13,605 nt of DNA from an uncultured Bacilli bacterium. Its GTDB lineage: Bacteria > Bacillota_I > Bacilli_A > RF39 > UBA660. Positions 250 to 13,605 of the stretch are shown here, one piece after another. The stretch covers positions 6,707 through 20,311 of the forward strand of contig CAPQQE010000014.1 of assembly GCA_948687865.1 (NCBI GenBank). The letters are read 5' to 3'. The stretch's first letter is position 1, and each line of letters starts with the position of its first letter. The notes beneath the pieces were generated by a model. The model ran no database searches, was not told where the DNA came from, and saw only the letters and a list, made by a program, of their open reading frames with translations. Made by a program: the position numbers and the translations under genes.

Positions 250-497
250 AATTATAAGTATGGAAAATCAATAAAGGAACATTTTGTAGATGGAAATGGT
301 AGAACTTCAAGATTACTTATGAACTTAGATTTAATGAATCACGGATATAATCCAGTAGTAATTAAAAAGGAAGATAGATTAAAGTATTATGAAGCATTAG
401 ATAAAGCTCATACTACAGAAGACTATACAGATTTTATTAAATTAATAACAAAATTAGAAATAGATAGTTTAAAAAATTTTTAGAATTGTTGAAGTAA
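250..497 (+). pseudogene. Fic-domain protein, C-terminal remnant (broken)
   Basis: The frame from 250 reads HFVDGNGRTSR (280-312), which is the Fic active-site loop HPFx(D/E)GN(G/K)RxxR with the proline missing. It continues through LLMNLDLMNHGY and IKKEDRLKYYEALDKAH, the usual downstream part of bacterial Fic proteins, then stops early at TAG 481-483. Restoring one T in the run at 476-480 lets it continue ELLK and stop at 495-497, so a one-base deletion is likely. The N-terminal two-thirds, any start codon and a ribosome site are absent; the frame is closed by TAA at 247-249. Fic enzymes transfer AMP or other nucleotide moieties to protein hydroxyl groups, often as toxins. This copy cannot make a functional enzyme. 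Assignment as a Fic remnant is firm. Confidence 0.88.
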
Positions 498-1534: not shown

Positions 1535-1783
1535 TTAGTTATTATTTTGTAATTTTGATAAAGTGTTTTGTATTTTAGTTGCTTCTATATTGTTTATTTG
1601 ATACCAACCATATCTAGTCATTTCATCATATGTATCAGCTTGATGAGTCATTGTATCATTTAAACATTCTTTAAGTAAATTTCTAGAATCTTCATTAGAA
1701 CTCTCAAGAGTACCATGAACGTATACCTCAACAGTACTCTTAAGTATTAATAAGTAATTTTCCATTATAAGTTTATCATTCAT
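1535..1783 (-). CDS. CotF-family spore coat protein, C-terminal-type small subunit (82 aa)
   Basis: This 82-residue protein reads MNDKLIMENYLLILKSTVEV near its start and later DTMTHQADTYDEMTRYGWYQ. The second stretch is the typical Coat F signature (helical, ending in (T/R)YGWYQ and followed by an asparagine-rich end). Such proteins are small, helical, ferritin-like coat components assembled on the spore surface. The ribosome site GGAGGTT (1791-1797, complement) is seven bases from the ATG, inside the end of the upstream coat gene, with which it overlaps by eight bases; the two are surely co-transcribed and co-translated. Paired short genes of this kind are known in Clostridia and other Bacillota. 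Family assignment is strong. Whether the host forms spores cannot be told from this window. Confidence 0.85.
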   Translation of the reverse strand: MNDKLIMENYLLILKSTVEVYVHGTLESSNEDSRNLLKECLNDTMTHQADTYDEMTRYGWYQINNIEATKIQNTLSKLQNNN

Positions 1784-1967
1784 TCTTTTTAACCTCCAAT
1801 AAATTCATTAATTTTTCTTTAGTTTCAGTATGTTTAGTTAATTCATTATTCATAAATGATACTAAATTTTCATCCTTCAAATTTTGAATTCCAGCCTCAA
1901 TTATTGAAATCATATTTGCCTCATGTCCGATGGCATCTTCAAAATATAATAATTCTTTTTGTGTCAT
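1776..1967 (-). CDS. CotF-like spore coat protein, N-terminal-type small subunit (63 aa)
   Basis: This 63-residue, all-helical protein begins MTQKELLYFEDAIGHEANMI and ends in a charged LLEVKKNE. It resembles the small partner usually found beside CotF-domain proteins and the first helical half of longer CotF-like proteins. The ribosome site TAGGAGG (1974-1980, complement) is six bases before the ATG. The last eight bases overlap the start of the next coat gene (1783-1535), so the two form a translationally coupled pair that probably works as a heteromer. There is no signal peptide, as expected for coat proteins made in the mother cell. The alternative is a non-coat ferritin-like helical bundle. 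The pair logic makes the coat-related call good but not certain. Confidence 0.75.
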   Translation of the reverse strand: MTQKELLYFEDAIGHEANMISIIEAGIQNLKDENLVSFMNNELTKHTETKEKLMNLLEVKKNE

Positions 1968-2086: not shown

Positions 2087-2943
2087 ATGGTAATTTTAAT
2101 CAAGTTAATGAAGATGTAAAAGGATTAAAGTATGTATTACAGAGTAATCGTAACGACCCTGATAGAATTATAAGAAAATATGAAAAATATGATTGTGTAT
2201 ATCCTTATAATAACGAATATATATGTGAATATTACAAACTTTTTGATTATAGTGGTCCAATACTTACAGTTGCATCATCAGGAGATCATATGCTTCATGC
2301 GATTTTATCTGGAGCAACAGATATAACTCTATTTGATATTAATCGTTTAACAAAATACTTTTGTATGCTTAAATTAGCAGCCATTAAAACTTTATCATAT
2401 GAAGAATTCTTTTCATATTTCGGTTCAGTTGATAAATATGGTCAAATAATTACTGGGAATATGAAGTCTAGGAAAATATACACAAAAATAAAAGAAAAGT
2501 TGAATCAAGAAGATATGTATTTTTGGAATAGGGTTTATTCAAGTTATTTAATAGAAAATATAGAAGATAAATTTTTTTATACTCCATCTTCTAGTATAAA
2601 TAATGCGTATGTTGATGAAAAACAATATTATATTTTACAAAATAATGCATTAGAATATAAAAAAACACCTTTATTTATAGAATCAGATTTATTAAAATTA
2701 ATATCAAAGCTTGATCCTAATAAAAAATATTCGAGTATATTCTTATCTAATATAGGTGCTTATGTAAATCAAAAGTTATTTAGAGATTCTATGCTAGAAC
2801 TTAAGAATTATTTATTAGATGGTTGTATGATTCAAACTGGATATATCCCTATTAAACCATATGATTCTTATAACTTATCATCTTATTATCCGTTTGATTA
2901 TATAGAATTAGATGGGCATTGTACTAGAGCAGTAGTAAAGTAG
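2087..2943 (+). pseudogene. DUF3419/BtaA-like AdoMet-dependent transferase, frameshifted at the start codon
   Basis: From 2290 an intact ATG-initiated frame runs to 2943, but coding resemblance begins much earlier. The same frame is open from 2065 and encodes NQVNEDVKGLKYVLQSN and then ILTVASSGDHMLHAILSGA, a Rossmann-type AdoMet-binding loop, followed by the acidic motif LFDINRLTKY. These are hallmarks of the DUF3419 family, which includes BtaA, transferring the 3-amino-3-carboxypropyl group of AdoMet. Promoter, ribosome site and ATG (2087) are all present, but the ATG is one base out of frame and gives only 10 codons; no ATG, GTG or TTG lies in the right frame before 2290. Adding one base after the ATG yields a 285-residue protein. 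A start at 2290 would cut through the AdoMet loop. Most likely a recent one-base deletion or a sequencing error. The family is likely; the substrate is unknown. Confidence 0.7.
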
Positions 2944-2946
2944 TTA

Positions 2947-2976
2947 TTTACAAAAATATATAATTTTTAGTAAAAT
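2947..2976 (+). promoter_or_regulatory. Possible promoter before the HD-domain gene
   Basis: TTTACA (2947-2952), an 18-base spacer and TAAAAT (2971-2976), in the 68-base gap before the HD gene. In DNA this AT-rich such matches also arise by chance, and the gene may simply be read from the upstream promoter. Confidence 0.3.
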
Positions 2977-3011
2977 ATATTTATAATTTATATTATAGTT
3001 AGGAGAATAAA

Positions 3012-3607
3012 ATGGAAGAAAATACACTAGATTTTTTGCTTAGAACTAATGATCTACAAAAAACAAATAGGGAAATTATCCAGATTTTAGCGAAACTACC
3101 TCTGAACATACTTTTAAAGTTATATTGTTGATAGACTATTTTTATAATAAATTTAATTTAGACTTAAATTATGAAAGATGTATAGAGATTGCTATTTATC
3201 ATGATTTTGGAGAAATGGATTTATCTAAAGATGTAGATATTAAAGAAAATGAAGATAAATTAATAAAACAAAACAAAGATATATATGAGAATATGAAGAT
3301 AAAACAGTTATCAGAAAAATATTATTCTAAGATATATGATTACTATAATGAATACAAGAATAAAAAAACCCAAAAATCACTCTTAGTAAATGCATGTGAT
3401 AAATTAGAAGGAATGATTCATCCTATATCAATAGGTGAACCTATCATGAATCATGAATTATTCGCAACATATGCCGATAATGCAATTAAAAGTTATCCAA
3501 TATTAATGCCCATTTATAAACAAGTTAAGAATAGACTAAAAAATAGTTATGAAAAATGGGGCTTTGAATGGAAAAAAGAATATGATAATATATTTGAAGA
3601 GTGTTGA
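3012..3607 (+). pseudogene. HD-domain phosphohydrolase (YfbR-like), frameshifted near the N-terminus
   Basis: The ATG at 3012 with ribosome site AGGAG (3001-3005) encodes MEENTLDFLLRTNDLQKTNR. Similarity then moves to the frame that reads GNYPDFSETTSEHTFKVILL. One base lost near 3068-3072 explains this, and restoring it gives 198 residues. The HD-superfamily metal ligands follow in order: His in SEHTFKV, His-Asp in YHDFGE and Asp in NACDKLEG. Proteins of this size and motif order include the YfbR-type 5'-deoxynucleotidases, which remove phosphate from dNMPs. A TTG at 3125 could start a shorter product, but it would lack the first metal-binding histidine. The neighbours are the AdoMet transferase upstream and the radical SAM gene 68 bases downstream. 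HD assignment is strong; 5'-nucleotidase activity is inference. Confidence 0.78.
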
Positions 3608-3624
3608 TAAAATATAATGAAATT

Positions 3625-3648
3625 ATGAGGTTATGATAATCTCATTTC
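3625..3648 (+). terminator. Hairpin between the HD and radical SAM genes (weak terminator or attenuator)
   Basis: ATGAGGTTA (3625-3633), loop TGA and TAATCTCAT (3637-3645) form a nine-pair stem with one wobble, followed by only a short T-rich tail (TTTCT). It could reduce read-through into, or stabilise the 5' end of, the radical SAM message. It is too weak in U residues to be called a sure terminator. Confidence 0.4.
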
Positions 3649-3675
3649 TACAAAATAAATTTTTATAGGAAGTAG

Positions 3676-4689
3676 ATGTTATATATGATAAAAGAAGTTA
3701 AAATTGAGTTAACTAATAAATGTTATAGAAACTGTAAGCATTGCTCTAGTAATGCTACTAGCAGTATCTCCAATTTAAAAGAATTGGATTTTGAAGATGT
3801 TTATAGGATTATTAATGAAGCAAAATTAATAGGAGCAGAAGCTATAGTTTTTACAGGAGGAGAACCTTTAATGTATGATAAACTTCCCGAACTTGTTGAA
3901 TTAACTTCAAAATTAGGAATGCAATCAACTATTTATACATTTGCTTATAGAACGAATGAAACTTTAGATAAATATAAAGAATTAATTAATTTAGGATTAA
4001 ATAAAATTATTTATTCACTTGCTGACTCATTATCTGATGAAGAAGATATTTCAATTTATGATAAAGAACAATTTTTTGATAGGATATTTGAAAATAATAA
4101 TGCTAGATTAGGATTTCATTATACTGTTTCCAAAAATTCTCTTTCTAGATTAAAATCTGTAATAACTGAAACTATTTATACATTTAAAAATAAAGGATAT
4201 TTTGATAAAGTTAGTTTACTTAGATTTGTTCCACATGGAAAAGGAACAACTAATATGGATTTATCTAAAGAAGAATTATTGGATATAAAAAAATTTTATT
4301 TAAATTTAAATGATAATAATAAAATAAGATTGGGTACTCCATGGAATATACTTGGAATAGAAAATATACCTTGTATAATTGCTGATGAGATAATAATTAT
4401 TGGATTTGATGGTATTGCTTATCCATGTGATTCTATAAAATATTTTACTAAATTAGGTATAAGTGGAAATATAAAAGAAAATTCATTGATAGAAATGTAT
4501 AATTCTGAGTATTTTAGTACTATTAGAAAATTTAATACTGACAATTCATGTTCTTCTTGTGAGAAATATTCTATATGTAAAAGTGGTTGTATAGGGCAAA
4601 AGATACTTGCAAATTATAATGAAAATGAAGATAGGTTGTTAACTTTAAAGAAATGTATTAACCAAAGGGATCCAAAATGTATGAGGTAA
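3676..4689 (+). CDS. Radical SAM enzyme with SPASM/twitch-like C-terminal cluster domain
   Basis: This 337-residue protein has the radical SAM cluster motif at Cys16, Cys20 and Cys23 (CYRNCKHC) and the AdoMet-binding GGEP at 61-64. Its C-terminal region has cysteines at 233, 251, 292, 295, 301, 305, 327 and 335, including CSSCEKYSICKSGC, typical of a SPASM domain holding one or two further iron-sulfur clusters. Such enzymes make 5'-deoxyadenosyl radicals and modify peptides, nucleosides or cofactors. The start may be 3676 (AGGA at 3667-3670, five bases away) or 3685, three codons in. The stop overlaps the start of the next gene by 13 bases, so the two are translationally coupled and probably act together. 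That partner is a family tied to modified thymine in DNA, which hints at a nucleoside or base substrate; peptide modification remains possible because SPASM domains are common there. Confidence 0.88.
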   Translation: MLYMIKEVKIELTNKCYRNCKHCSSNATSSISNLKELDFEDVYRIINEAKLIGAEAIVFTGGEPLMYDKLPELVELTSKLGMQSTIYTFAYRTNETLDKYKELINLGLNKIIYSLADSLSDEEDISIYDKEQFFDRIFENNNARLGFHYTVSKNSLSRLKSVITETIYTFKNKGYFDKVSLLRFVPHGKGTTNMDLSKEELLDIKKFYLNLNDNNKIRLGTPWNILGIENIPCIIADEIIIIGFDGIAYPCDSIKYFTKLGISGNIKENSLIEMYNSEYFSTIRKFNTDNSCSSCEKYSICKSGCIGQKILANYNENEDRLLTLKKCINQRDPKCMR

Positions 4690-5633
4690 GTATGAAAAAA
4701 AGACAAGAAGTATATGATTTATATTGGTATTTTGCTTATGAAAGACAAAATATATTCTGGAAAAAATTAAATGGAGAAATACCTCCCTGGACTAATGATA
4801 AGATTTTACAAGAATATAAATTTTGTAATAGTTATAGAGTTAATGATAGAGTTAGTCAGTATTTACTTAAAAATGTTATATATAATGGTAAAGAGTATTC
4901 TAAAGAAGATATGTTATTTAGAATATTATTATTTAAGTTATTTAATAAAGAATCAACATGGGAGTTATTAATAGATAAATTTAAGGATATTACATTAAAA
5001 ACATTTAATACTAAGGAATATTCTAAAGTATTAGAAAATGCTATATCAAGTGGTATTAAAATATATAATGATGCTTATATAAGTTGTGCTAATAAAGCAT
5101 TTGGTTATGATAGAAAGCATGATAATCATTTAGCACTACTTAATAAAATGTTTAATGAAGATAAGATTCAAAATAAAATTATTGAATGTAAAACCATGGA
5201 AGAAGCATTTAATATCATTAAAAATTATCCTTTAATTGGTAATTTTATGGCTTATCAATTAGTCACTGATATTAATTATAGTGAAGTTGTAGATTTTAAA
5301 GAAGATGAATTCACAGTCGCAGGACCTGGATCACTTCGTGGAATAAAAAAGTGTTTTATAGATAAAGGCAAAATGACTAATGAAGATATTATTAGATATA
5401 TGTATGAGCATCAAGATGCAGAATTTAGAAGACTAAACTTAGATTTTGAAAAGATTGGAGATAGACCCCTTCAACTTATAGATTGTCAAAATATATTTTG
5501 TGAATTAGATAAGTATTGCAGGGAAGCCTTACCTGATTTAAAATCTAATAGAACTAAGATAAAAAAAAGATATAAAGAAAATAAAAATAAAATAGAATAT
5601 GTTTATCCTAAAAAATGGAATATTAAAATTTAG
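4677..5633 (+). CDS. 5-hmdU DNA kinase helical-domain / thymine pyrophosphorylase-like protein
   Basis: This 318-residue, mostly helical protein fits the family named from the helical domain of phage 5-hydroxymethyl-dU DNA kinases and alpha-glutamyl/putrescinyl-thymine pyrophosphorylases. Features I associate with it are YWYFAYERQNIFWKKL (16-31), YRVNDRVSQYL (53-63), FRILLFKLFN (81-90), GNFMAYQL (188-195), DEFTVAGPGSLRGIKKCF (210-227) and LQLIDCQNIFCELDKYC (265-281). No P-loop kinase is fused to it, so it would act alone or with a partner. In phages these proteins take part in building hypermodified thymine in DNA. The start at 4677 overlaps the radical SAM gene by 13 bases; an alternative ATG at 4692 has GAGGT four bases before it and also keeps the whole domain. 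The C-terminal 30 residues are very lysine-rich, compatible with nucleic-acid binding. Family confidence is fairly good; activity is inferred. Confidence 0.72.
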   Translation: MYEVSMKKRQEVYDLYWYFAYERQNIFWKKLNGEIPPWTNDKILQEYKFCNSYRVNDRVSQYLLKNVIYNGKEYSKEDMLFRILLFKLFNKESTWELLIDKFKDITLKTFNTKEYSKVLENAISSGIKIYNDAYISCANKAFGYDRKHDNHLALLNKMFNEDKIQNKIIECKTMEEAFNIIKNYPLIGNFMAYQLVTDINYSEVVDFKEDEFTVAGPGSLRGIKKCFIDKGKMTNEDIIRYMYEHQDAEFRRLNLDFEKIGDRPLQLIDCQNIFCELDKYCREALPDLKSNRTKIKKRYKENKNKIEYVYPKKWNIKI

Positions 5634-5744: not shown

Positions 5745-5776
5745 ATTCAAATATGAACTTAAAAGGGGGTTATGTA

Positions 5777-6251
5777 ATGAGTGGCAACGAAAAATCAAAA
5801 ATAGATTTTGAAAATGCAAGAAATTTTGTGATAAATAATATTTTATTAGTTTTATTAAACAAAATAGACAATGTTACTATGAATTTTGGTAAAACAGAAA
5901 AAGAAGGAAAAAAAGAAGCGTATACTTATTATCTCAAGTACAAAAAGGGAAAAAGATAATTATATAGATTTAGATATTCCAGATGATAATTACTTAGCTT
6001 TTCTTGAAAAATTTTTATCTGATATATTAAACTTGCCTGAGAAATATGCAATGATTCAAGTAAGCAGATATTATTTAGTTGAGTCAGACGAAGAGTTATT
6101 TTCAGGATTAGATGTAGAAAATATTTATGGTGATAGAATTAGAATAAATTTAGAATGCACAGGAAAAGAATTTAATCAAATAATATCTAAATATACTGAT
6201 TGTTACAATAAAATACTAGAACTTAAGGGATATAATATTAATAATATATAA
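5777..6251 (+). pseudogene. Unknown protein (about 157 aa), broken by a one-base insertion
   Basis: The ATG at 5777 has a strong ribosome site AAAGGGGG (5762-5769) and a consensus promoter upstream, and encodes MSGNEKSKIDFENARNFVIN onward. This frame stops at 5957-5959 after YLKYKKGKR. A second frame takes over without a gap as DNYIDLDIPDDNYLAFLEKF and runs to 6251. Removing one A from the run at 5952-5956 joins them into a single acidic, soluble 157-residue protein that reads sensibly throughout, so I treat it as one gene with a frameshift. A further in-frame ATG at 5753 exists but lies before the ribosome site. I recognise no domain. There is no signal peptide or membrane segment. The product is probably lost unless the indel is a sequencing error. 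Small, acidic, strongly expressed proteins in accessory regions are often immunity or regulatory proteins, but nothing here proves it. Confidence 0.6.
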
Positions 6252-6439: not shown

Positions 6440-6456
6440 ATCTAATATGTTATAAT
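6428..6456 (+). promoter_or_regulatory. Promoter of the prfB-ftsEX operon
   Basis: Extended -10 TGTTATAAT (6448-6456) with a poor -35 (TTTATT, 6428-6433) 17 bases upstream. It lies 15 bases before the prfB ATG, so the mRNA leader would be very short (under about 10 bases). Confidence 0.5.
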
Positions 6457-6471
6457 TTTTATGGTGATAAT

Positions 6472-7567
6472 ATGGATACTAAAGATGTAAAAAATGAAAT
6501 ATTATTGTTACAAGAGAAACTTCAAAATATATGGAGGTTACTTTGATGTAGATAATAAAAAAGTTAATATTATCTCTATGGAAGATGAATTAGAAGAAAA
6601 ATATAATAATAATTTATGGAACTCACCTGATACTATTTATTTATCGAAATTAATAGGTAATGATAAAAAAATAATATCTAATATAGAATCGTTAAAATTT
6701 AAATTAGAATCATATATTGATATAATTTCTAGTGATGAAGAAGAATTAATAAATGAAATAGAAGAAGAGTTAAAATCATTAACAAAAGAAATTAATGCGC
6801 TAGAACTTGAAACAAAATTATCAGGTAAAAATGATAAAAATAATGCTATTTTAGAAGTTCATTCAGGAGCTGGTGGAACAGAGGCCTGTGACTGGGCAAA
6901 TATGATTTTAAGAATGTATCTTAGATGGTGTGATAAAAAGAATTTTAAATATGAAATATTAGATACTCTTCAAGGAGAAGAGGTAGGTATTAAAAAGGTT
7001 ATAGTTTTAGTAACTGGAATAAATGCATATGGTTATTTAAAATGTGAAAGAGGGGTTCATAGGTTAGTAAGATTATCTCCTTTTGATTCAGCAAATAAAA
7101 GACATACATCATTCGCAGCAGTAGAAGTAATACCTGAAGAAAATGATGATATTAATATAGAAATCAAAGAAAGTGATATAAGAGTAGATGTATATAGAAG
7201 TAGTGGAGCAGGAGGACAAGGAGTAAATACTACAGATAGTGCTGTTAGAATTACCCATATTCCTACTAATATAGTAGTAACTTGTCAAAATGAAAGAAGC
7301 CAACTTAAAAATAAAGAACAAGCTATGAAAGTATTAAAGTCTAAATTATATGCATTAGAAGAACAAAAATTACTACAAGAGTCAGAGGAATATAAAAAGG
7401 ATCAAAGTTCCATTAATTTTGGTTCGCAGATACGAAGTTACGTAATGCATCCATATTCAATGGTAAAAGATCATAGAACAAATTATGAAACAAGTAATGT
7501 TAGTAAAGTATTAGATGGCGAGATAGATGAGTTTATTGAGAGTTATTTAAACTTTAACATAAAGTAA
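6472..7567 (+). CDS. prfB: Peptide chain release factor 2, made by +1 programmed frameshift
   Basis: The protein recognises UAA and UGA on the ribosome and triggers release of the finished peptide. The gene is split. ATG 6472 opens 24 codons (MDTKDVKNEILLLQEKL...WRLL) that reach an in-frame TGA at 6544-6546; reading then skips T6544 and continues as DVDNKKVN to 7567. The joined product, join(6472..6543,6545..7567), has 364 residues, the normal RF2 length. The SPF codon-recognition tripeptide is at residues 202-204 and the catalytic GGQ at 247-249 in SSGAGGQGVNTTDS. An ATG at 6494 in the second frame gives a false N-terminus and should not be used. ftsE follows after 20 bases. The frameshift lets RF2 regulate its own synthesis: low RF2 leaves the UGA unread and favours shifting. 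Confidence 0.97.
6533..6546 (+). promoter_or_regulatory. prfB programmed +1 frameshift site
   Basis: The internal Shine-Dalgarno-like GGAGGT (6533-6538) sits three bases before the slippery CTT (6541-6543) and stop TGA (6544-6546), the same layout as in the classical RF2 site. Pairing of the ribosome with the internal site pushes the tRNA on CTT to TTT (+1). Confidence 0.95.
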
Positions 7568-10434: not shown

Positions 10435-10470
10435 TATAAATAATAGTAGATAATATGGGAGTGCTTGTAT

Positions 10471-13400
10471 ATGAAAGAAAAATTTAAAAGAAAAAAATAT
10501 AAAATATTAATAGGAATAGTATTATTAATAACTGTGATAATTGGTATAAATAAACTAGGGTCTATTGACGTAGATTCAGGAAAGGTAAGAATAAAAACTG
10601 CATCTATAAAAGAAGAAAATAAATTAGCTGCTAGTATAATAGAAACAAAAGGATATGATCTAATAAAATATCCTGTTTTGTATACCCTTGAAAAAGTAGA
10701 AGGAATAGAAGATAGAACAGTAGTAATAAAGGGTACTCTAAATAAAGATGAATCAAAATATGCACACTTTAAAGAAATAAATGAAAAAAATATAACAAGT
10801 ACTATAAAAGATAATGGTAGAGAAATAGAGATAAAAATAGAAAAAGTAAAATTAGGTGAAGAAAATAAAATAGATTTAAACTTAGTTATAACAGGAGCTC
10901 CAAATGAATATAAAATAAATCCTAAAATAGAAGTAAAGGAAATATCAGAAGAAAAATATACAAAATTAAATACAAAAGAAATACAGATAAAAACAAATAG
11001 TATAACAGGAATAGTAACTGATGAAGCAGGTATGAGTGTAAGTAATATTGAAATAAGCTTACATAAAGATAATAATGAAATAAAAAGAACATATACTGAT
11101 AAAGACGGTAGATATGTATTTAGTGATATAGAAGAAGGATTATATACTTTAAAAATAGAAGAGGAAGTTTATCAAATAGACGATTCTTCTGAAGTAGAAA
11201 TAAAAGAAGGAACAGAAAAAAATATTAGTGTAAAACAGGTAGAACCATATAAAATAAATGTAAGAAAGTATATAAATAGGGTTAAGATAGTAAATAAAGG
11301 AAAGACAAAAGAATATAGTTATGATAAATTACAAAAAGTAGTTCAATCAGTTAAAAACTTACAAGAAATAGAAGGTGAAATAGAATATAAAGTAGTAGTA
11401 AAAAATGAAGGAACAAAAGAAGGAATAATAACAAGGGTAGAAGAAGAGTTAGATAAATCCTTAACATTTAATAAAGAAAAAAATAAAGGTTGGAAAGAAA
11501 AAAACGGAAAGTTATATAATACAAATTTAGAAGGATTAACACTAAAAAAAGGAGAAACAAAGGAAATAACTCTAGTTGCAGATATAACAAAAACAAATGA
11601 AGCTAAAGTATATTTATCAAAGGTAATAGTAAAAGGCGAAGTATATGAAAAAGTAAGTTATATACTAGATGGGAAAGAATATAAAGTAGAAGAAGTATTA
11701 GAAGGAGAAAAACTGATAGATCCAAAGTTAGAAATAGAAAATTTTAGTGGATGGTATACAGATAAAAACTATACAAATAAATATGACTTTAATAAAGAAG
11801 TAACAAAAGACATAATATTATATGGAAAAACAAAAAATGAAGTAAGTAAATACAATGTAACATATATAGATAATGGAGAAGTAGTAAAAACAGAGGAATT
11901 AGAGGAAGGTACATTAATAACACCTCCTATTGTTACTAAAGAGGGTTATACATTTGATGGATGGTATGAAAAAGAAGAAAAATATGATATTTTACTTCCT
12001 ATAACAAAAGATTTAATATTAGAAAGTAAATATAATATAAATACTTATAAAATAACATTTAAAAATGATAATGGCGATATTCTTCAAGAAGAAACACTAA
12101 ATTATGGAGAAATTCCTGTATATAAAGAAGAAGGACCATATAAAAATAAAACAGATGAGTATACATATACATTTAAATCATGGGATAAAGAAATAGAAAA
12201 AGTAACAAAAGATGAAGAATATACAGCAATCTATGATGAAGTTAAAAATAAATATAAAGTAACATATATAATTGAAGGAGAAGAATATTATAGTGAAACT
12301 TTAGAATATGGAAGTATTGTACTAGAAAAAGAAAGCCCAGAAAAAAGTGGATATACATTTTTAGGATGGTATAATGAAGATGATGTAATAGAGGAGTATC
12401 CAATAACATTAACAAAAGATATAACATTGTATGGGAAATATCAGATAAATACTTATACAATTAGATTTTTTGATAAAGATGTAGAAATAAAAGACTTTGA
12501 GCAAAAAGTAGAATACCAAAATCAGGTAAAAGAACCAGAATTAGCACCTACTTTAGAAGACTATAAATTTATAGGATGGGTAATAAAGGGAACAGATACA
12601 CCATATGTATTTGGAACACCAGTAGAAGGCAATATAGATTTAGAAAGTAAGTTTACAAAGAAACCTACATATTTAGTAACATTTAATATAGAAGGTAATA
12701 CTGATATAATAATGGGAGAGGAAGTAATAGAAGGTAAATTAGCTACAAGACCAGATCCTGATCCAATAAAAAAAGGATATACATTTGATGGATGGTATAC
12801 AGATAATACTTATAGCAATAAATATGATTTTAATGATAAAGTTATGAATAATATAGAAATATATGGAAGATATATTGAAGATAGTCATATAGTAACATAT
12901 CATAATGAAGATGAAATATATAATGTAGAAAAAGTATTAGATAGTTATACAGCAAATAAACCAAGTGAAGATCCAACTAAAGAAGGTTATACATTTAAAT
13001 ATTGGTCAAAAGAAGAAAATGGAGTACAATATAATTTTAGTGAAGAAATAAAAACAGATATAGATTTATATGCAGTTTATGAAATAAATTCATATGAAAT
13101 AGTATTTAGAAATTATGATGGAGTAGTTTTACAAAGTGAAACTTTAAATTATGGTGATACACCAGAATATAAAGGAGAAATACCAGTACGTGAAAAAACA
13201 GATGAGTATACATATGTATTTTCATCATGGGATAAAGAAATAACAAATGTTACAAAAGATGAAGAATATACAGCAGTCTATACAAATACTAAAAATAAAT
13301 ATAAAATAACATTTGTAAATTATAATGGCGAAGAATTACAAAGTGAGATCCTAGAATATGGAAGTACTCCAGTATACAAAGGAGAAACACCGGTAAAAGA

Positions 13401-13605
13401 AAAGACAGATGAATATACATATACATTTAAATCATGGGACAAAGAAATAGTAAATGTTACAAAAAATGAAACTTATGTAGCAGTTTTTGATAGTGTAAAA
13501 ATTAAATATACAGTAATATATATGGATGGAGATTCTGAATATACAAGAAAAGAAGTAGAATATGGGGACGTTGTTGCAGAAGAAGTAATAACAAAACAAT
13601 ATAAT
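10471..13605 (+). CDS. Large membrane-anchored surface protein with InlB-type B-repeats (partial, runs off window)
   Basis: The frame is open for 1045 codons with no stop before the window edge. The ATG has GGGAG (10457-10461) nine bases before it. The order of parts is a basic N-terminus (MKEKFKRKKYK), one hydrophobic helix at about 12-27 (uncleaved anchor or signal), a region without recognised domain, and a carboxypeptidase-regulatory-like/SpaA-like beta domain (178-236, ITGIVTDEAG...DKDGRYVFSDIEEGLYTL). A DUF11-like segment (about 260-392, YKVVVKNEGTKEG) follows, then at least nine Listeria-Bacteroides (InlB B) repeats from about residue 394, each near 60-70 residues and built around F-x-GWYT and TKDI-x-LYGKY. 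The sequence is rich in Lys and Glu. Such proteins are extracellular stalks or adhesins. Any C-terminal anchor lies beyond the window. The ligand is unknown. Confidence 0.88.
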   Translation, partial: MKEKFKRKKYKILIGIVLLITVIIGINKLGSIDVDSGKVRIKTASIKEENKLAASIIETKGYDLIKYPVLYTLEKVEGIEDRTVVIKGTLNKDESKYAHFKEINEKNITSTIKDNGREIEIKIEKVKLGEENKIDLNLVITGAPNEYKINPKIEVKEISEEKYTKLNTKEIQIKTNSITGIVTDEAGMSVSNIEISLHKDNNEIKRTYTDKDGRYVFSDIEEGLYTLKIEEEVYQIDDSSEVEIKEGTEKNISVKQVEPYKINVRKYINRVKIVNKGKTKEYSYDKLQKVVQSVKNLQEIEGEIEYKVVVKNEGTKEGIITRVEEELDKSLTFNKEKNKGWKEKNGKLYNTNLEGLTLKKGETKEITLVADITKTNEAKVYLSKVIVKGEVYEKVSYILDGKEYKVEEVLEGEKLIDPKLEIENFSGWYTDKNYTNKYDFNKEVTKDIILYGKTKNEVSKYNVTYIDNGEVVKTEELEEGTLITPPIVTKEGYTFDGWYEKEEKYDILLPITKDLILESKYNINTYKITFKNDNGDILQEETLNYGEIPVYKEEGPYKNKTDEYTYTFKSWDKEIEKVTKDEEYTAIYDEVKNKYKVTYIIEGEEYYSETLEYGSIVLEKESPEKSGYTFLGWYNEDDVIEEYPITLTKDITLYGKYQINTYTIRFFDKDVEIKDFEQKVEYQNQVKEPELAPTLEDYKFIGWVIKGTDTPYVFGTPVEGNIDLESKFTKKPTYLVTFNIEGNTDIIMGEEVIEGKLATRPDPDPIKKGYTFDGWYTDNTYSNKYDFNDKVMNNIEIYGRYIEDSHIVTYHNEDEIYNVEKVLDSYTANKPSEDPTKEGYTFKYWSKEENGVQYNFSEEIKTDIDLYAVYEINSYEIVFRNYDGVVLQSETLNYGDTPEYKGEIPVREKTDEYTYVFSSWDKEITNVTKDEEYTAVYTNTKNKYKITFVNYNGEELQSEILEYGSTPVYKGETPVKEKTDEYTYTFKSWDKEIVNVTKNETYVAVFDSVKIKYTVIYMDGDSEYTRKEVEYGDVVAEEVITKQYN
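11650..13605 (+). repeat. Tandem array of InlB B-type repeats within the surface protein
   Basis: Repeats begin near 11650, 11851, 12037, 12253, 12448, 12664, 12886, 13090, 13294 and 13504 (the last cut by the edge), with units of about 180-215 bases. Two subtypes alternate: a GWYT...YDF...LYGKY form, and a form with TDEYTYTFKSWDKEI and VTKDEEYTA. The second form occurs three times (12037-12234, 13090-13284, 13294-13494) and is close to identical over its second half even at DNA level, a sign of recent duplication or gene conversion. Confidence 0.85.

What the first reader, a model, noticed from the sequence alone, without database searches (positions are those of the whole stretch)
2087..5633. 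Four-gene cluster: AdoMet transferase, HD hydrolase, radical SAM/SPASM and 5-hmdU-kinase helical-domain protein
Seen: four adjacent same-strand genes, with the last two overlapping by 13 bases. Known: the helical-domain family comes from phage pathways that hypermodify thymine in DNA; YfbR-like HD proteins dephosphorylate deoxynucleotides; radical SAM enzymes and aminocarboxypropyl transferases both decorate nucleosides. Inference: together they could build or remove a modified (deoxy)nucleoside in a bacterial chromosome, perhaps as anti-phage defence or as a prophage leftover. I know of no described pathway with exactly this set.
Basis: partly seen in the sequence, partly recalled or inferred. 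Interest (0 to 1): 0.72.

Follow-up and report, generated by a model that had tools for sequence, protein, structure and literature searches.

The report
Radical enzyme paired with HMUDK_hel protein
Of the four neighbouring genes only the last two recur together in other genomes: a radical enzyme and a protein whose phage relatives sit in thymine-rebuilding gene clusters, probably a mobile two-gene device of gut bacteria that alters a DNA base or nucleotide, though its chemistry and purpose are unproven.

Summary
Four same-strand genes are present, but the first two (DUF3419-type, HD_3-type) are frame-broken, and relatives of neither were found near the fourth gene in 81 related loci. The recurrent unit is a pair: a radical SAM/SPASM enzyme (3676-4689) and an intact PF18723 HMUDK_hel protein (4677 or 4692 to 5633; E=1.6e-106). 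The radical SAM family lies directly upstream in 36 of 81 loci; HMUDK_hel stands without it in 45, so it is optional. HMUDK_hel is rare (12 of 193 genomes of the order) and its neighbours keep changing: an accessory gene. Its predicted fold resembles phage 5-hmdU-kinase helical domains and, more weakly, queuosine nucleosidase, a phage glycinyltransferase and HhH DNA glycosylases. On 21 plasmids of other phyla it lies near thymidylate-synthase-like (11), MazG (9), TIR+Nmad2 (5) or a distant radical SAM gene (1). More distant relatives of this radical SAM enzyme are fused to MazG (3 of 3 scanned). Best reading: an accessory module acting on a pyrimidine in DNA or nucleotides, perhaps anti-phage; substrate, chemistry and purpose are inferred. 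A new variant of a known kind.

The parts
3676..4689 (+). Radical SAM/SPASM enzyme, 337 aa, first gene of the recurrent pair
   Evidence: PF04055 5.3e-16 and PF13186 2.2e-08; cysteines C16, C20, C23, C233, C251, C292, C295, C301, C305, C335 invariant in 21 relatives
4677..5633 (+). HMUDK_hel protein, 318 aa (or 313 aa if it starts at 4692), core of the pair
   Evidence: PF18723 1.6e-106; AlphaFold2 model pLDDT 88.7
2087..2943 (+). Frame-broken DUF3419-type gene; neighbour, not part of the recurrent unit
   Evidence: PF11899 3.7e-09 on the ORF 2290-2943; frames; absent from 81 related loci
3012..3607 (+). Frame-broken HD_3-type gene; neighbour, not part of the recurrent unit
   Evidence: PF13023 2.9e-09 on the ORF 3125-3607; frames; absent from 81 related loci

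Best explanation
Genes 3 and 4 are a small accessory cassette of gut Bacilli that acts on a pyrimidine base, in DNA or as a nucleotide. HMUDK_hel is the core: a protein of the HhH DNA-glycosylase / amino-acid:DNA-transferase kind of shape that would hold and present the base. The radical SAM/SPASM enzyme is an optional tailoring enzyme that makes a radical change to it. The purpose is most likely conflict with phages (marking own DNA, or acting on phage DNA or nucleotides). Shown: the families, the recurrent pairing, the patchy distribution in changing places, the fold resemblance, the partners seen elsewhere. Inferred: substrate, chemistry, movement between genomes by transfer, and the defence role.
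Against: HMUDK_hel stands without the radical SAM gene in 45 of 81 loci, and 9 of the 12 order genomes with HMUDK_hel have no match to gene 3 at E 1e-20 anywhere, so the pair is not obligatory. No TIR, Nmad2, MazG, thymidylate synthase, P-loop kinase or ADDT relative was found within 6 kb in the 80 genomic loci (single queries, E 1e-4). Of 20 close neighbours scanned in gut Bacilli one is clearly of defence type. PADLOC has no match for gene 4. Foldseek finds no significant PDB match (best E 0.28), and sequence profiles do not link gene 4 to the glycinyltransferase. Parallel descent alone would also give a high Mantel r.
Confidence: 0.45

Rival explanations
1. HMUDK_hel works alone as a reader or eraser: it recognises a modified thymine (5-hmdU or a derivative) in incoming phage DNA and removes or exposes it, much as Brig1 glycosylases act on modified cytosine. 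The radical SAM enzyme is a side function present in some strains.
Against: Phage members lie in clusters that make modified bases rather than remove them; the glycosylase match is weak (Foldseek best E 0.28); recurrent pairing with gene 3 is unexplained.
Confidence: 0.2
2. The pair works on free nucleotides: the radical SAM enzyme makes an altered nucleotide (chain terminator or signal, in the manner of viperin) and HMUDK_hel transfers or senses it.
Confidence: 0.15
3. A recent prophage leftover.
For: HMUDK_hel relatives occur in 464 of 50,697 phage records; one viral contig has a 51% relative next to a thymidylate synthase homologue.
Against: Gene 3 has 2 weak partial matches in the phage collection; one locus in one scan of IMG/VR for gene 4; changing chromosomal neighbours in 80 loci.
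Confidence: 0.04
4. All four genes form one pathway.
For: They are adjacent and on one strand here; in phage PaMx11 a YfbR-like HD gene does lie near HMUDK_hel.
Against: Genes 1 and 2 are frame-broken; relatives found in 0 of 81 loci; HD relatives and HMUDK_hel share no genome among 193.
Confidence: 0.03

Closest known systems
Phage thymine-hypermodification clusters (PaMx11 read here; SP10 and phiW-14 as fold matches)
   Same: HMUDK_hel component: PaMx11 gp50 PF18723 5.6e-41, hhalign probability 98.9 to this family; SP10 5-hmdU DNA kinase TM 0.79, phiW-14 TM 0.62
   Different: Here no P-loop kinase, amino-acid:DNA transferase or thymidylate synthase relative was found nearby; a radical SAM/SPASM gene instead
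TIR + Nmad2 + HMUDK_hel plasmid loci (L082, L083, L086, L163, L164)
   Same: HMUDK_hel core; in Parabacteroides L086 a radical SAM/SPASM gene is adjacent
   Different: Gut Bacilli loci lack TIR and Nmad2 relatives within 6 kb; the L086 radical SAM is only 27% identical to gene 3 and lies downstream
Acyl carrier / HTH / ImmA-IrrE / thymidylate synthase / HMUDK_hel / MazG plasmid loci (such as L088, L089, L090, L095)
   Same: HMUDK_hel core, nucleotide enzymes beside it
   Different: No radical SAM gene; many more components
Viperin
   Same: Radical SAM enzyme that could act on a nucleotide; weak PADLOC pVip profile match 1.6e-12
   Different: 36.9 bits against a cut-off of 180; SPASM domain with conserved cysteines
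Brig1-type defence glycosylases
   Same: Would also act on modified bases (search listing); gene 4 resembles HhH glycosylases weakly
   Different: No sequence comparison with Brig1 was made here

Membership tests
PF18723 HMUDK_hel | Score above the curated cut-off over the whole profile | tested here: met
   356.2 bits against 25, profile positions 2-280 of 281
Complete 5-hmdU DNA kinase | P-loop kinase domain in the same protein | tested here: not met
   Only HMUDK_hel and one sub-threshold unrelated family in Pfam at E up to 1
Radical SAM/SPASM | Radical_SAM and SPASM domains with the CX3CX2C and SPASM cysteines (motif rule recalled) | tested here: met
   Both over cut-off; C16-C20-C23 and C233, C251, C292, C295, C301, C305, C335 invariant in 21 sequences
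Viperin (NF038283) | Score above the curated cut-off | tested here: not met
   36.9 bits against 180
Amino acid:DNA transferase / glycinyltransferase (PF18724) | Sequence match to the family | tested here: not met
   No PF18724 match at E up to 1; hhalign probability 0.9
Amino acid:DNA transferase / glycinyltransferase (PF18724) | Same fold | tested here: inconclusive
HhH DNA glycosylases | Same fold and glycosylase activity | tested here: inconclusive
YfbR-like 5'-deoxynucleotidase (gene 2) | Score above the curated cut-off | tested here: not met
   22.7 bits against 25.9; HD_3 37.5 against 22.5; only the ORF 3125-3607 was scanned
DUF3419 (gene 1) | Score above the curated cut-off in an intact gene | tested here: inconclusive
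   36.7 bits against 28.2 for the ORF 2290-2943, but the gene is frame-broken
Anti-phage defence system | Protects cells from phage | not testable with these tools
   No PADLOC match for gene 4; needs plating tests

The most novel reading that the evidence does not exclude
The radical SAM enzyme takes the place of the hydroxymethylase-plus-kinase route of phages: held by HMUDK_hel, a thymine (or other pyrimidine) already in DNA is changed directly by a radical reaction, giving some gut Bacilli a hypermodified base in their own chromosome without a modified dNTP pool. In the five TIR+Nmad2 plasmid loci the further partner is thymidylate synthase in two, MazG in two and radical SAM in one, which fits a shared slot but rests on five loci; outside these, thymidylate-synthase-like and MazG genes occur together in 7 of 21 records.
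Probability: 0.12. Interest if true: 0.87.

Novelty: new variant of a known kind. Interest (0 to 1): 0.5.

Why it matters
HMUDK_hel proteins are frequent in sequence databases (4953 matches to gene 4 at E 0.001) and carry names taken from a phage kinase to which the domain is fused in some phages; what the helical domain itself does is not settled in anything I could read. A minimal setting of one or two genes, with natural versions lacking the radical SAM gene as controls, makes that directly testable. If the pair modifies DNA, it would be a bacterial hypermodification route that need not start from 5-hmdU.

Tried and rejected
Four-gene unit: rejected on 81 loci and the HD and DUF3419 surveys. 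DUF3419 is common in the order (79 of 193 genomes, with tandem arrays in some), so its presence near gene 3 says little. Recent prophage origin: judged unlikely. Viperin: rejected. Defence neighbourhood in gut Bacilli: of 55 close same-strand neighbours other than gene 3 I scanned 20: one clear defence-type gene (L077, Mrr_cat + nSTAND3), three nucleotide enzymes (L033 one, L034 two), seven with no family at E 0.001 (L018, L044, two... see calls) and the rest mostly housekeeping or surface proteins; no enrichment is claimed and no control set was run. Slot idea: thymidylate-synthase-like and MazG genes co-occur in L084, L088, L089, L090, L092, L095 and L158, so they do not exclude each other in general. 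Radical SAM model: mean pLDDT 74.6 with a poor C-terminal part; its fold neighbours (SuiB, PqqE, SkfB, viperins, BlsE) do not tell the substrate. A translation of L081 in a wrong frame was of no use. A second plasmid search with the Parabacteroides radical SAM protein found only its own record at E 1e-20, and gene 3 itself found no plasmid at E 1e-15. Absence of a family from a fold list excludes nothing.

Papers. PMC13092281 (DefensePredictor): abstract, outline, passages and section 7; figures not seen. PMC11946847, PMC6449724, PMC10853773: passages. PMC11078745 (Brig1): search listing only. Wen 2024 and Burroughs 2015: seen as reference entries only. Burroughs 2015, Iyer 2013 and Wen 2024 are not held, so whether TIR-Nmad2-HMUDK_hel or a radical SAM variant is described there I cannot say.
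Full report
What is there. The window (24.6% G+C) carries on the + strand a DUF3419-type gene, an HD-type gene, a radical SAM/SPASM gene and a PF18723 HMUDK_hel gene. The third and fourth are intact. The first and second are frame-broken: the ATGs at 2087 and 3012 open frames that stop early, while the family-like residues run in another frame. Two short ORFs in different frames at 5753-6251 may be a third broken gene, so assembly indels are as likely as decay. Gene 4 may start at 4677 (13-base overlap with gene 3) or at 4692 (2-base gap), where 8 of 14 relatives in alignment A1 start.

What recurs. A database search found 4953 relatives of gene 4 at E 0.001 among 5728 candidates; the 120 listed are 80-88% identical. 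From the genome collection I took 80 loci, the best of 148, and one viral contig. At least two pairs of loci come from one bin each (L013/L016, L008/L037). The gene 3 family lies directly upstream on the same strand in 36 of 81 loci; DUF3419 and HD relatives in none (tblastn, E 1e-5). In L015 and L076 the radical SAM gene is itself split in two ORFs. Clustering the ORFs near HMUDK_hel shows no other regular partner: the next cluster, ABC-transporter-like by eye, occurs in 22 loci and is adjacent in one. Divergence of the two proteins within 35 pairs, the window included, agrees closely (Mantel r 0.94, 0 of 2000 permutations), which shared descent alone would also give. On a tree of 82 rows, whose bootstrap had not settled, the paired state needs 11 changes (at least 4 forced by well-supported branches) against a mean of 27 in shuffles, 0 of 500 as low: it is inherited in clusters and has been gained or lost several times.

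How common. HMUDK_hel has matches in 12 of 193 genomes of the order of G001 (G001 was chosen for having it; G117 and G144 have only broken or cut copies) and in 4 of 392 of a phylum sample, 3 over the cut-off. The gene 3 family has matches in 9 of 193: three at 65-83% identity, all beside HMUDK_hel (G001, G069, G179), and six at 40-44% with open frames of 547-578 aa, in genomes without HMUDK_hel. Of these six I scanned three with Pfam; all are radical SAM-SPASM-MazG fusions (L146, L147, L149). I fetched the wider surroundings of five of the six; in three (L178, L179, L180) a 586-aa gene lies next to the fusion, a HerA-type ATPase where scanned (L149). Nine of the 12 HMUDK_hel genomes have no match to gene 3 at E 1e-20. 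Leaving G001 out, two of two genomes with a close gene 3 relative are among the 11 of 192 with HMUDK_hel. HD relatives occur in 5 of 193 genomes, none with HMUDK_hel. DUF3419 occurs in 79 of 193, including 5 of the 12 HMUDK_hel genomes, there on other contigs.

Context elsewhere. I fetched all 21 plasmid records with a match to gene 4 (regions; two without annotation) and compared them with single representative proteins (tblastn, E 1e-5). Thymidylate-synthase-like matches in 11 of 21, some weak (25-35% identity); MazG in 9 of 21; both together in 7. TIR in 6 and TIR with Nmad2 in 5 (L082, L083, L086, L163, L164); in these five the further partner is thymidylate synthase in two, MazG in two, radical SAM in one. 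The last is Parabacteroides L086: ThsB-like TIR, Nmad2, HMUDK_hel, radical SAM/SPASM, an unknown 521-aa protein; its radical SAM is 27% identical to gene 3. Its plasmid is the only one found with that radical SAM. Five of five phage loci looked at, out of 464 phage records with a match, have a thymidylate synthase homologue near HMUDK_hel. In the 80 gut-type loci none of the queries for TIR, Nmad2, MazG, thymidylate synthase, ImmA, acyl carrier protein, dCTP deaminase, dTMP kinase, ADDT or P-loop kinase matched within 6 kb; one weak phospholipase match (L007) and two Ham1 matches (L008, L066) did. In L077 an Mrr_cat-nSTAND3 gene ends 1 base before HMUDK_hel. In L174 HMUDK_hel is interrupted by a transposase-like ORF and followed by a DNA methyltransferase-like gene (named by eye).

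Reading. The enzymes found beside HMUDK_hel (thymidylate synthase, MazG, once radical SAM) and the MazG fusions of the gene 3 family point to nucleotides or DNA bases as substrate. The fold points, weakly, to base handling. The patchy distribution, the plasmid settings with TIR and other conflict-type genes, and published work on related domains point to phage conflict: DefensePredictor names a 5-hydroxymethyluracil kinase and a thymidylate synthase among newly validated defence domains, and aGPT-PPlase and MazG among predicted ones (PMC13092281, passages); I could not see whether that kinase belongs to PF18723. I file this as a minimal new variant of HMUDK_hel-based nucleotide/DNA-modification systems. 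Substrate, chemistry and purpose are inference, and the strongest fact against a tight two-gene pathway is that HMUDK_hel stands without gene 3 in 45 of 81 loci.

Noticed in passing
L146:1504-3177, L147:775-2427, L149:1495-3138: Radical SAM-SPASM proteins fused to MazG (Pfam), distant relatives of gene 3, in genomes without HMUDK_hel; one beside a Ham1-type gene (L146) and one beside a HerA-type gene (L149).
   Followed up: partly
L088, L089, L090, L095 and similar plasmid loci: Recurrent set of acyl carrier protein or holo-ACP synthase, HTH regulator, ImmA/IrrE peptidase, thymidylate synthase, HMUDK_hel and MazG in cyanobacteria and rhizobia, with related sets in Streptomyces and a haloarchaeon.
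   Followed up: partly
G044:C7 38070-52351, G027:C25 94521-105176: Tandem arrays of DUF3419-type genes in two genomes of the order.
   Followed up: no
L174:5590-7207: HMUDK_hel gene interrupted by a transposase-like ORF (IS200/IS605 type by eye), with a DNA methyltransferase-like gene downstream.
   Followed up: no
PHROG phrog_800: Family labelled terminase small subunit, yet it matches gene 4 (1.9e-09); PaMx11 gp49, a P-loop protein beside HMUDK_hel, bears the same label in its record. Probably a wrong label.
   Followed up: no
window 6440-7567: prfB-like gene whose reading frame shifts early at a CTT TGA site, as in the known programmed frameshift of release factor 2 (frames; motif recalled).
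   Followed up: no
window 5753-6251: Two overlapping ORFs in different frames that may be one broken gene.
   Followed up: no
window 1535-1967: Two small minus-strand genes; one matches Coat F (6.3e-14), the other has no family match.
   Followed up: no
window 319-483: 54-aa ORF that looks like the tail of a Fic-type protein (by eye, not scanned).
   Followed up: no
window 10465-13605: Long repetitive surface-type protein running off the window end (1047 aa shown).
   Followed up: no
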